Shown in pieces: positions 5,889 to 19,810 of a DNA stretch of 64,000 nt. Under the pieces are notes generated by a model. The model was not told the DNA's origin and ran no database searches. It worked only from the letters and a program-made list of their open reading frames with translations. How positions within the stretch are numbered: position 1 is the first letter of the stretch; every line of letters starts with the position of its first letter. Source of the stretch: Thiorhodovibrio frisius (GTDB taxonomy: Bacteria > Pseudomonadota > Gammaproteobacteria > Chromatiales > Chromatiaceae); contig NZ_CP121471.1 in NCBI RefSeq assembly GCF_033954835.1, positions 248,001 through 312,000 on the forward strand, in the 5' to 3' direction. A program made the position numbers and the translations under genes.

Positions 5889-6302
5889 ATGCCATTAACG
5901 TTTCATCCGCACCCCGGCATGGTGTTGATCTGTGACTTCAACACGGGCTTCAAGGCTCCGGAGATGATTAAGCGGCGACCGGTGGTGGTGATCTCGCCAC
6001 GCCCCCGGCGGACGAACCAGCTTTGCACCATTGTCCCCTTGAGTACCACGGCACCGAATCCAGTGGAGCCGTTTCACCATCGCATGGACCGGCGTTCGTT
6101 ACCAGGGAAACTCGCCCGGAAGGAGACTTGGGCAAAGTGCGATATGCTCGCCACCGTGTCGTTGGAGAGGCTGGATCGGGTGATGGTTGGGAAGGAGCCT
6201 ACCGGTAAGCGCATTTACATTGCGCAACAGGTGCTTGACGAAGACTTCGAGGCCATCCGCCGGGGTGTGATGATTGCCCTCGGGGTGATCAATCCAGCTT
6301 GA
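5889..6302 (+). CDS. PemK/MazF-family toxin, no protein antitoxin visible
   Basis: A 137-aa PemK/MazF-type protein. It starts with MVLICDFNTGFKAPEMIKRR, the beta-barrel loop containing the conserved KRRPVVVISP segment. It continues with CTIVPLSTTAP and a C-terminal part with AKCDMLATVSLERLDRV. MazF proteins are sequence-specific endoribonucleases. It is slightly longer than classical MazF (about 110 aa). The 90 bases upstream hold only the relic leader ORF, so no protein antitoxin gene is visible. Directly downstream lies a segment with four strong hairpins (6303-6450), which could be its RNA partner or simply its 3' UTR and terminator. Confidence 0.85.
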   Translation: MPLTFHPHPGMVLICDFNTGFKAPEMIKRRPVVVISPRPRRTNQLCTIVPLSTTAPNPVEPFHHRMDRRSLPGKLARKETWAKCDMLATVSLERLDRVMVGKEPTGKRIYIAQQVLDEDFEAIRRGVMIALGVINPA

Positions 6303-6450
6303 TTCAAGGGTACCTGGGTATTACACTCGTGTTGTTCCCGATTAGTCGGGCTTGTAAGACTACCTTCGGGTAGCAGACCCCAGCCGGTGATGACAAGCTG
6401 GCTGGGGACTCTGATCCAAGGCTCTGCATCGCAAGGTGCAGGGCCTTTTG
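6303..6450 (+). ncRNA. Candidate structured RNA downstream of pemK
   Basis: Four hairpins are packed into about 115 bp. They are: 6337-6350 (5-bp stem, TTAG loop); 6360-6373 (5-bp stem capped by a TTCG tetraloop); 6378-6407 (8-bp CCCCAGCC/GGCTGGGG stem with a 14-base loop); and 6420-6445 (9-bp stem with one G-U pair) followed by TTTT, resembling an intrinsic terminator. The region begins immediately at the pemK stop codon and codes for nothing convincing. It could be a 3' UTR, a processed small RNA, an RNA antitoxin or a structured attachment element. The fold is my own pairing by eye. Confidence 0.5.
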
Positions 6451-6541: not shown

Positions 6542-6710
6542 TCAACCCCGCCGTATCCAACACCACATCCGCCAGCGCCCAGGCCTCCGGGTTGTGGCTG
6601 ATGAAGAACTTGCGGTGGTAGCTGCCTTGCTGCAGGCGTTGGTGGGGGTGCCGGGGCAGGGTAGGGTGGTCCCCACTGCGACCGGTGAATCGGCTAAACT
6701 CAGCCCATGA
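6542..6710 (+). repeat. Sulfotransferase-end/promoter repeat, copy B (internally deleted)
   Basis: Begins TCAACCCCGCCGTATCCAAC as in copies C and D. It loses about 80 bp of the middle after GGTAGCTGCC and ends in ACCGGTGAATCGGCTAAACT. The -10-like TAAACT (6695-6700) is followed 6 bases later by the ATG of the Rpn-type gene at 6707, leaving almost no 5' leader. Confidence 0.65.
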
Positions 6711-7159
6711 CAGCCGAAACCACCGCCGCGAACGACTACGACAGCCCCTGGAAAGAAGCTCTGGAGAAGTTCTTCCCGGAGTTCCTGGCGCTGCTGTTCC
6801 CGGCCATCCATGCCGAGATCGACTGGTCCAAAGGCGTGCAATTCCTCGACAAGGAGTTCCAGCAGATCGTGCGCGAGGCCAAGACGGCGCGGCGCTATGC
6901 GGATAAGCTGGTCGGCGTCACGCGCCGCGATGAGACGCCGGTGTGGGTGCTGGCCCATGTGGAAGTGCAAGGCGACCCGGAAACCGTCTTTGCCGAGCGG
7001 ATGTTCACTTACCACTATAAAATCCGCGATGTCTACCAGGTGCCGGTCGCGAGCCTGGCGGTGCTGGCCGACAATCAAAACATTTGGGGCAAAACATTTG
7101 CAAAACATTTGGCAAACATTTGGGGCCAGGCTCGAATTGTTTTTCCAAGCCAACACTAA
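6707..7159 (+). pseudogene. Rpn/PD-(D/E)XK nuclease family gene, 5' part only
   Basis: The first ~125 residues match the N-terminus of the Rpn-like (recombination-promoting nuclease / transposase-like) family: PWKEALEKFFPEFLALLFP, then KEFQQIVREAKTARRYADKL and VLAHVEVQGDPE, the last being the conserved nuclease strand. The family normally runs to about 300 aa. Here the homology ends after VASLAVLADNQ, where a 50-bp stretch of AACATTTGG repeats intervenes. The frame then runs out of phase into the end of an unrelated methyltransferase gene. The start at 6707 lies just behind a repeat-borne -10 box. Confidence 0.75.
7077..7126 (+). repeat. Short AACATTTGG-type tandem repeat at a fusion joint
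   Basis: Four imperfect units of 11-14 bp built on AAAACATTTGG(GG)C lie exactly between the Rpn fragment and the methyltransferase-end fragment. The composition is clearly more AT-rich than the flanks, suggesting slippage or filler at a recombination joint. Confidence 0.6.
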
Positions 7160-7346
7160 GAACCGTATTAAGCCCAGCAATTGGGCCAATGCCACCTCGC
7201 TGCTGTTGGCGAGCCAAGGCCGGCGCCTGCTCAAAGAGGGCAAGCCGATCGAGTCAGAGGACGACAACCGCGCCGAGCTGACGCGCCAGGCCGAGGAATT
7301 CGCGGCCAAGGATCTGCCGATCTTGAACGTGCTGGGGGTGGTGTAG
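7120..7346 (+). pseudogene. 3' end of a methyltransferase (regulatory domain) gene
   Basis: In a frame different from the Rpn fragment, the translation ends with GKPIESEDDNRAELTRQAEE and a tail LNVLGVV. It matches the C-terminus of the methyltransferase at 10940-12485 (which ends LKALGVV). DNA identity continues past the stop (GGGGGTGGTGTAGGGTAGGCG), so an ancestral gene end and its 3' flank were copied. There is no start or catalytic domain; it is a remnant. Confidence 0.75.
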
Positions 7347-7370: not shown

Positions 7371-7664
7371 TCACTGGTTCAATTGCAGTTGCGGATGAAG
7401 GCCGGCGCGCGTGGCTAAGGTCAGCAGCATGTCCAGGCTGAAATCTTCCACCTTGCCTTTGACCAAACGGGACACCCTGGGTTGGGTGATTCCCAACTGA
7501 CGCGCGGCCTCCGCTTGCGTCCAGCCCTTGGCCTTGAGTTGCTGGGCCGTGCGAATCATGACCTCGGTGCGCATTTTCATCACCTCCGCCTCGGCCGGGT
7601 CGAAGCCGAGATCAGCGAAGACGTTGCCACTGCTTTCGATCATGCGGGTATCGTCGTCTTTCAT
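7371..7664 (-). CDS. XRE-family antitoxin (HigA-like)
   Basis: A 97-aa protein with a C-terminal helix-turn-helix: AQQLKAKGWTQAEAARQLG is helix 1-2 and ITQPRVSRLVKGKVEDFSL the recognition part and following helix. Members of this XRE subgroup act as antitoxin and repressor for RelE/HigB-like toxins whose genes lie directly upstream. The start overlaps the toxin stop by 4 bp (ATGA, 7661-7664). The toxin-first order is typical for HigBA. Confidence 0.85.
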   Translation of the reverse strand: MKDDDTRMIESSGNVFADLGFDPAEAEVMKMRTEVMIRTAQQLKAKGWTQAEAARQLGITQPRVSRLVKGKVEDFSLDMLLTLATRAGLHPQLQLNQ

Positions 7665-7984
7665 GGAGCCTCTCCAATCAGCTTGTAACGTTTGGCGGCC
7701 AGGTCGATATCCGTTTTCCGGGTCGTTCGGGTCTTTTTCTGGAAGGCGTGCAGCACATAGATGGCATCGGCCTGCTTGGCGACGTAGATCACCCGAAACG
7801 CGCCGTTGGCATCCCGATGCCGTATCTCATAGGCACCGGCTCCGACAGAGGAGATGGGCTTGAAATCGCTCGGCAGGCCGCCGTACTGGACAGTCATCAA
7901 CTCGACACCCAACGCCTGCCGCACCGGGGCCGGCATTTCACGCAGATCGTCCAAGCTGGAACCGAGAAATCTCAGCGGTTTCAT
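7661..7984 (-). CDS. RelE/HigB-like toxin (phage Gp49-related)
   Basis: A 107-aa protein starting MKPLRFLGSSLDDLREMP. Its core GAYEIRHRDANGAFRVIYVA and VLHAFQKKTRTTRKTDIDLA is diagnostic of the Gp49/HigB branch of the RelE superfamily, ribosome-associated mRNA interferases. The ATG at 7984 is preferred over an upstream one at 8020 because the family begins with this segment. Overlaps the XRE gene by 4 bp. All expected strands and the basic C-terminal helix are present, so the module looks intact. Confidence 0.85.
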   Translation of the reverse strand: MKPLRFLGSSLDDLREMPAPVRQALGVELMTVQYGGLPSDFKPISSVGAGAYEIRHRDANGAFRVIYVAKQADAIYVLHAFQKKTRTTRKTDIDLAAKRYKLIGEAP

Positions 7985-8075
7985 GTCTTGGTTTATGCCA
8001 GAACTTGCATAAGTAGACAAGCTTTTCCGAACGGCCGTCTAGCGGCGCTTTGGGCGGCGGCCTCAGCATTCCACC

Positions 8076-19529: not shown

Positions 19530-19810
19530 GTGCGGCCTGGCAAGGCCGCGTGCTCTAGCGGGTTAGAGTCCCGCCCGGGTAATCGTGAGCCGCGAGCCCG
19601 GTATCAAGCCTTACGGCGCGAAGGGTAACTGACGCGTCGGTGCGTAGGCATGAAAACAGGCGAGGTGCAAAGGTAGCGGGTGAAGCCGCCCCTGAAGGTG
19701 TAGAGCCCCGAAAAGAATTTGTCGGAGAGTGCCGACGGGTTTGTCCCCCCGGCAGGCAACACTCCATGTCGCGTCAAGGTCAGTGGCATGGAGTGTAGTT
19801 TCTCTCCTCT
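19530..19810 (+). mobile_element. Group II intron 5' fragment, no reverse transcriptase
   Basis: Starts GTGCGGCCTGG, a GTGCG-type intron 5' end, and goes on with TAGCGGGTTAGAGTCCCGCC, GAGCCCGGTATCAAGCCTTA and GGCGAGGTGCAAAGGTAGCG. These are sequences I recognise from domain I of bacterial group II introns. A 10-bp-stem hairpin lies at 19759-19796. No intron-encoded protein, domain V or 3' end follows, because the transposon begins around 19810. The intron would have entered the sulfotransferase gene after ..GGGGACA. The right border is approximate. Confidence 0.6.

What the first reader, a model, noticed from the sequence alone, without database searches (positions are those of the whole stretch)
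5889..6450. Orphan PemK/MazF-type toxin followed by a four-hairpin RNA candidate
A 137-aa PemK/MazF protein has no protein antitoxin gene next to it. Directly after its stop lie four hairpins in ~115 bp, including a TTCG tetraloop hairpin, an 8-bp CCCCAGCC stem and a final terminator-like stem with TTTT. Type III antitoxins (ToxI) are RNAs that neutralise MazF-fold toxins, although they lie upstream of the toxin. A downstream RNA antitoxin or structured regulatory 3' UTR would be new. It may match an RNA motif already linked to pemK genes in comparative screens; I cannot check.
Basis: partly seen in the sequence, partly recalled or inferred. Interest (0 to 1): 0.75.

Follow-up and report, generated by a model that had tools for sequence, protein, structure and literature searches.

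The report
MazF-like toxin with an RNA partner
A bacterial growth-stopping protein that databases file with protein-controlled toxins is, across many phages, plasmids and bacteria, almost always found with a small folded RNA gene of its own, which is most simply explained as the RNA that holds the toxin in check and would be a previously undescribed kind of toxin-RNA pair.

Summary
In detail: a 137-aa PemK/MazF-fold protein (5889-6302) with no protein antitoxin, then four hairpins (6337-6447). The hairpins are not a 3' UTR. They are a separate RNA gene (about 6334-6450) with its own promoter and terminator, belonging to a large RNA family that Rfam 15 does not hold. In 69 divergent toxins of this subfamily the RNA is recognisable beside 68. 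It usually lies downstream, in one clade upstream (ToxIN-like order), and in two cases convergent on the opposite strand. Base pairs covary strongly around an 8-nt GANNNCAA loop. A covariance model built without the window finds this RNA once in the whole 5.4-Mb genome; among 28 relatives it occurs exactly where the toxin does. Four other PemK/MazF loci of the same genome have small upstream ORFs (three match antitoxin families) and no such RNA. Phages also carry the intact RNA with the toxin missing or broken, whereas no clear intact toxin lacks it: the asymmetry of toxin and antitoxin. Best reading: a type III-like RNA antitoxin acting in trans; antisense pairing with toxin mRNA is not supported. 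Neutralisation itself is untested. New variant of a known kind.

The parts
5889..6302 (+). PemK/MazF-fold toxin gene, 137 aa; R30 and S52 occupy the positions of the MazF catalytic Arg/Thr (placed by eye from the E. coli MazF sequence)
   Evidence: Pfam PF02452; AlphaFold2 pLDDT 94.6, VIA Z 15.9 to MazF-mt1; R30 and S52 invariant in 67 homologues
6299..6304 (+). -35 box TTGATT of the RNA's own promoter (overlaps the toxin stop codon)
   Evidence: exact register of the family consensus TTGAC at -35..-31, 17-nt spacing; window boxes read off
6322..6327 (+). -10 box TACACT
   Evidence: family consensus TATAAT-like at -12..-7 relative to G(+1) of GUUCCC in 54 non-redundant loci
6334..6450 (+). structured RNA gene, about 117 nt, proposed RNA antitoxin; inferred start G6334
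   Evidence: fold z -6.0; model R1, built without it, hits 6335-6412 with 41.4 bits, E 6e-7; sole hit in the genome
6337..6350 (+). P1 hairpin
6360..6373 (+). P2 hairpin with TTCG loop
   Evidence: four of its five pairs have changes on both sides across the family
6374..6413 (+). P3 hairpin; apical 8-nt loop GATGACAA at 6389-6396 (family consensus GANNNCAA)
   Evidence: three loop-closing pairs 80/80, 79/80 and 71/80 paired in 80 distinct loci
6418..6447 (+). P4 intrinsic terminator of the RNA, with T run

Best explanation
The locus is a two-part toxin-antitoxin module in which the antitoxin is RNA. The protein is a MazF-fold endoribonuclease-type toxin (fold predicted, catalytic-position residues conserved; activity inferred). 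The RNA is transcribed from its own sigma-70-type promoter and ends at its own terminator (seen at sequence level), folds into P1-P2-P3-P4 with a conserved 8-nt GANNNCAA loop on a covarying stem (shown by comparison), and most likely binds the toxin and blocks its RNA-cleaving surface, with the GANNNCAA hairpin as recognition element (inferred). Because the RNA has its own promoter and lies on either side of the toxin, on either strand or alone, it should act in trans. Loss of the module, or shut-off of the RNA during phage infection, would free the toxin. Toxin-less copies in phages would protect those phages from resident toxins (inferred).
For: (1) Covariation: in 80 distinct loci the three loop-closing pairs are kept 80/80, 79/80, 71/80 through C-G, A-U, U-A and G-U; five-pair total 290/400 against a shuffle maximum of 252 in 2000. 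A plain MAFFT alignment of 16 RNAs is 94% paired against 38-52% when slid, with 13 of 21 pairs changed on both sides and 0/500 shuffles as high. On 55 RNAs, 323 double-change cells against 98 expected (alignment fitted to the model). Pair 1 changed state at least 9 times on the toxin tree. (2) Linkage: model R2 hits 84 of 96 toxin loci; 83 lie beside the toxin, the other in a locus with a broken toxin; no other hit in 454 kb up to E 5. Among 28 relatives the RNA is in exactly the three genomes with the toxin. (3) Independent gene: TTGAC/TATAAT with 17-nt spacing at fixed distance from GUUCCC in 54 loci; RNA upstream in one clade (100/98 support), convergent in two distant lineages. (4) Toxin/antitoxin asymmetry: intact RNA with toxin broken (L037, L194, L199 from genome G690, L016) or absent (14 phage loci, E. 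coli L212). (5) No protein antitoxin: no neighbour family in more than 7 of 67 loci. Control: four other PemK/MazF in this genome have small upstream ORFs and no RNA. (6) The fold is the one shared by type II MazF and type III ToxN (PMC5086642).
Against: No experiment shows expression, toxicity, binding or neutralisation. Known type III antitoxins are tandem repeats encoded upstream of ToxN/CptN/TenpN; here the RNA is a single unit, mostly downstream, and the toxin is in the PemK family. Orphan RNAs could be remnants, or the RNA could have its own phage function. One divergent toxin (L015) has only the 5' half of the RNA recognisable.
Confidence: 0.68

Rival explanations
1. Type I-like: the RNA is an antisense regulator that pairs with toxin mRNA and blocks its translation or destabilises it.
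For: Small, promoter-driven, terminator-ended RNA able to act in trans; two convergent cases (L025, L036) could overlap the toxin transcript.
Against: Cognate RNA x toxin translation-start region is no better than dinucleotide-shuffled controls (48 loci, mean z 0.03; window z 0.40); longest complement 6.8 nt cognate against 6.4 non-cognate. Conservation sits in a structured stem-loop rather than a variable antisense arm.
Confidence: 0.12
2. The RNA is not an antitoxin but a working part: the protein-RNA particle is the active effector (for example the RNA guides or activates the nuclease), or the RNA is an independent phage small RNA that travels with the toxin.
For: Very strong structural conservation, and RNAs found without the toxin. 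AbiF proteins, which bind such RNAs, are structurally linked to ancestral Cas13 (PMC12373285).
Against: The loop is constant rather than guide-like; a toxin broken beside an intact RNA in several loci (L016, L037, L194, L199) fits an antitoxin better than a cofactor.
Confidence: 0.13
3. Ordinary: a stable 3' UTR and terminator of the toxin mRNA, or a solitary PemK with chance hairpins; any antitoxin is a protein elsewhere.
For: In most loci the RNA directly follows the gene; P4 is a normal terminator.
Against: Own promoter at fixed distance, upstream, antisense and orphan placements, covariation, and no conserved neighbour protein.
Confidence: 0.03

Closest known systems
Type III toxin-antitoxin systems ToxIN / CptIN / TenpIN
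   Same: RNA antitoxin next to a MazF/Kid-fold endoribonuclease; RNA ends in a terminator; in one clade here the order is RNA-terminator-toxin as in ToxIN; carried by phages and plasmids.
   Different: Single non-repeated RNA with three stem-loops and a GANNNCAA loop; usually downstream with its own promoter; toxin matches PemK (PF02452) and no other Pfam family.
AbiF/RCd22 of Clostridioides difficile (PMC12373285)
   Same: Phage-borne toxic protein with a roughly 100-130-nt structured RNA that has its own promoter and terminator, acts in cis and in trans, and neutralises by direct binding; the paper describes conserved abiF motifs.
   Different: Toxin is Abi_2 rather than MazF-fold; the RNA lies upstream and carries two copies of a different motif.
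MazEF / PemIK (type II)
   Same: Toxin family, fold and catalytic-position residues.
   Different: No protein antitoxin; very low similarity to solved MazF (best E 1.6e-4 for the family profile).
AvcID (PMC10511110)
   Same: RNA antitoxin for an anti-phage toxin.
   Different: Toxin is a deoxycytidylate deaminase.
Rfam pemK RNA motif RF02913
   Same: A structured RNA named for pemK.
   Different: No match here at E up to 5; from memory it is a motif of Firmicutes placed upstream of genes.

Membership tests
Type III TA (ToxIN/CptIN/TenpIN) | RNA antitoxin encoded beside the toxin | tested here: inconclusive
   RNA gene beside 68 of 69 divergent toxins, but antitoxin activity not testable
Type III TA (ToxIN/CptIN/TenpIN) | antitoxin made of tandem repeats | tested here: not met
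   single unit 6334-6450; one CM hit per locus
Type III TA (ToxIN/CptIN/TenpIN) | RNA upstream of toxin, terminator between them | tested here: not met
   downstream in the window; met only in the clade L067/L076/L081/L088/L116
Type III TA (ToxIN/CptIN/TenpIN) | toxin with MazF/Kid/CcdB fold | tested here: met
   AlphaFold model, VIA Z 15.9 to MazF-mt1 and 12.7 to Kid
Type III TA (ToxIN/CptIN/TenpIN) | toxin belongs to the ToxN, CptN or TenpN sequence family | tested here: inconclusive
   Pfam lists PemK_toxin only; ToxN not among the listed folds, which does not exclude it
Type III TA (ToxIN/CptIN/TenpIN) | RNA binds toxin and neutralises it | not testable with these tools
   needs expression and binding assays
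Type II MazEF/PemIK | toxin of PF02452 | tested here: met
Type II MazEF/PemIK | protein antitoxin gene adjacent | tested here: not met
   no family match upstream; no neighbour family in more than 7 of 67 homologous loci; control loci in the same genome do have one
Type I TA | antisense complementarity to toxin mRNA | tested here: not met
   translation-start region only
Rfam pemK RF02913 | covariance-model match | tested here: not met
AbiF/Abi_2 systems | Abi_2 domain toxin | tested here: not met

The most novel reading that the evidence does not exclude
A widespread, hitherto unnamed family of RNA-neutralised MazF toxins of phages and plasmids, annotated as type II PemK, whose RNA antitoxin is a self-standing trans-acting gene; toxin-less phages carry the RNA as a ready-made antidote, so RNA antidotes and toxins are traded among prophages. 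It would also show that a MazF-type toxin can be controlled by RNA instead of protein.
Probability: 0.6. Interest if true: 0.9.

Novelty: new variant of a known kind. Interest (0 to 1): 0.85.

Why it matters
Genes of this subfamily are named 'type II toxin-antitoxin system PemK/MazF family toxin' in public records although no protein antitoxin can be found beside them; the missing antitoxin is probably this RNA. The RNA family spans Alpha-, Beta- and Gammaproteobacteria, plasmids, temperate phages and a tectivirus-like Vibrio phage, and is absent from Rfam 15. It would link type II and type III systems through one toxin fold, make the origin of RNA antitoxins testable, and expose a likely RNA-based counter-defence in phages. 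E. coli prophages carry both the paired and the RNA-only form at the same place, so the idea can be tested quickly in laboratory strains.

Tried and rejected
Pseudoknot between the GCUUG linker and CAAGC: proposed from early sequences, then dropped as the core feature, because the GC after CAA pairs inside P3 and the linker varies in other subtypes; a CUUG:CAA(G) contact remains possible in the gammaproteobacterial subtype but is invariant there and so untestable by covariation. Rfam: nothing on the RNA. Antisense control of the toxin: no signal. Protein antitoxin: neighbour clustering finds none. STnc100 hits near L111 are a separate RNA. PADLOC has no model that matches the toxin. Literature: no description of this pair found, but the library lacks most subscription papers and preprints, and candidate-RNA lists such as PMC8040213 could contain it unnamed. 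Six apparent exceptions without a downstream RNA turned out to carry it upstream. ToxN was not among the listed structural matches, which says nothing either way. Fold energy of one phage RNA (L188) is not unusual on its own (z -1.6); covariation carries the case. In the automatic promoter table the window's RNA start was mis-picked; its boxes were read by hand from the sequence.

Full report
WHAT IS THERE. The ORF at 5889-6302 is a PemK/MazF protein (Pfam PF02452, 52.5 bits). It matches no NCBIfam model and falls in a phage protein family of unknown function, phrog_15698. AlphaFold2 with 67 homologues gives pLDDT 94.6 and a MazF fold: VIA Z 15.9 to MazF-mt1, about 15 to B. subtilis and S. aureus MazF, 12.7 to Kid. 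R30 and S52, which by my reading of the MazF sequence sit at the catalytic Arg and Thr positions, are invariant in 67 sequences. Downstream, 6334-6450 folds as four hairpins with z = -6.0.

HOMOLOGUES CARRY THE SAME RNA. Searches in genomes, plasmids, phages and viral contigs gave about 125 loci. Reading downstream of the toxin stop shows the same layout in nearly all: GUUCCC-P1-CUUG-nRAGAC-P2-P3-P4 terminator. P3 ends in an 8-nt loop GANNNCAA closed by three covarying pairs: 80/80, 79/80 and 71/80 paired in 80 distinct loci, with C-G, A-U, U-A and G-U. An alignment of 16 RNAs made without structure is 94% paired against 38-52% when slid; 13 of 21 pairs have changes on both sides and no shuffle does as well. 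With 55 RNAs aligned to the model there are 323 double-change cells against 98 expected (this alignment leans to the structure). On the toxin tree the first loop-closing pair changes type at least nine times while staying paired.

INDEPENDENT DETECTION. Covariance model R1, built from other loci without the window or its close relatives, finds the window RNA with 41.4 bits and nothing else in the window or the genome. Among 28 relatives it occurs in exactly three, the same three that hold the toxin. The wider model R2 hits 84 of 96 toxin loci. 83 hits lie next to the toxin; the other (L016) lies 1.6 kb from a broken toxin; there is no other hit in 454 kb up to E 5. Of the 12 loci R2 missed, most show the RNA by eye. 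In the set of 69 divergent toxins of the tree only L015 has no recognisable loop.

THE RNA IS ITS OWN GENE. Aligned at the G of GUUCCC, 54 non-redundant loci show TTGAC at -35..-31 and TATAAT-like at -12..-7, spacing 17, and matches fall to background at shifted registers. In the window this is TTGATT-17-TACACT with +1 at 6334; the -35 box overlaps the toxin stop. The RNA is not fixed in place: it lies upstream of the toxin with a terminator between in L067, L070, L076, L081, L088 and L116, one clade at 100/98 support, and on the opposite strand in E. coli plasmid p5217 (L025) and L036, which sit apart on the tree. A 3' UTR cannot do this.

ASYMMETRY. A scan of viral contigs for the RNA core alone gave, by my reading, 43 real RNAs, the rest being chance matches inside coding genes. 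About 28 follow an intact toxin, one follows a toxin remnant (L194), and 14 have no toxin, in phages where the RNA stands alone after what looks like the antitermination gene or in a structural-gene region. Many of these contigs are near-copies of each other. E. coli prophages show Q-toxin-RNA (L211, L213) and Q-RNA (L212) at the same place. Toxins with frameshifts or truncation beside an intact RNA are L037, L016 and L199 (the last from a genome whose toxin match holds several stops). The reverse, an intact toxin clearly without RNA, was not found.

CONTROLS. Four other PemK/MazF loci of the same genome have a small ORF directly upstream; three match RHH, MazE-like or MazE families and the fourth only weakly an antitoxin model. 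None has the RNA. No neighbouring protein family recurs in more than 7 of 67 loci of our subfamily; recurring ones include repressor-like HTH proteins, as expected of genes carried as lysogenic cargo (inference). Cognate RNA-mRNA pairing at the toxin start is no better than shuffled.

MECHANISM. The simplest account is an RNA antitoxin acting in trans on a MazF-fold toxin. Shown by sequence comparison: gene, promoter and terminator sequences, structure, linkage, placement, asymmetry. Inferred: toxicity, binding, the role of the GANNNCAA hairpin, and counter-defence by RNA-only phages. The nearest tested precedent is AbiF/RCd22, a phage-borne toxin neutralised by direct binding of a promoter-driven structured RNA in cis and in trans (PMC12373285). 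Type III toxins and MazF/Kid share the fold (PMC5086642).

NOVELTY. Not in Rfam 15, and no paper found in the held library. It works like type III but fails two of its usual features (tandem repeats, upstream position) and its toxin sits in the PemK family, so I do not file it under ToxIN, CptIN or TenpIN. I call it a new variant of a known kind.

Noticed in passing
window 19565-19808 (+): Group II intron D1-D4-6 match (91 bits), the only Rfam hit in the window.
   Followed up: no
window 7371-8020 (-): HTH_37 regulator (7371-7664) and Gp49/DUF891 protein (7661-8020) overlap by 4 bp: a HigBA-like type II pair close to the module.
   Followed up: no
window 6707-7346 (+): Two overlapping frames of what looks like one broken gene, with short 'aaacatttg' repeats at about 7085-7130 at the break; no Pfam match for the first part.
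   Followed up: no
L111:1118-2955: Four STnc100 (RF02076) small-RNA copies flank the toxin-RNA module in one prophage.
   Followed up: partly
L032:2001-2600: In a Sphingomonas plasmid the module sits between dnaN and recF.
   Followed up: no
L214:1790-1867: RNA without PemK in E. coli A34, between a Panacea-domain gene and a ParD/RelE pair, i.e. within a toxin-antitoxin cluster.
   Followed up: no
L211:1914-2834: RefSeq annotates a helix-turn-helix CDS that begins inside the 3' end of the RNA; gene starts near such RNAs may be misplaced.
   Followed up: no
L202:1501-1597 (-) and L204:1501-1577 (+): Weaker model hits on bacterial chromosomes without PemK nearby (44.8 and 37.9 bits): possible chromosomal orphan RNAs.
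   Followed up: partly
L007, L012: Members in MAGs labelled Microbacteriaceae and Acidobacteriaceae; may be binning errors or true transfers.
   Followed up: no
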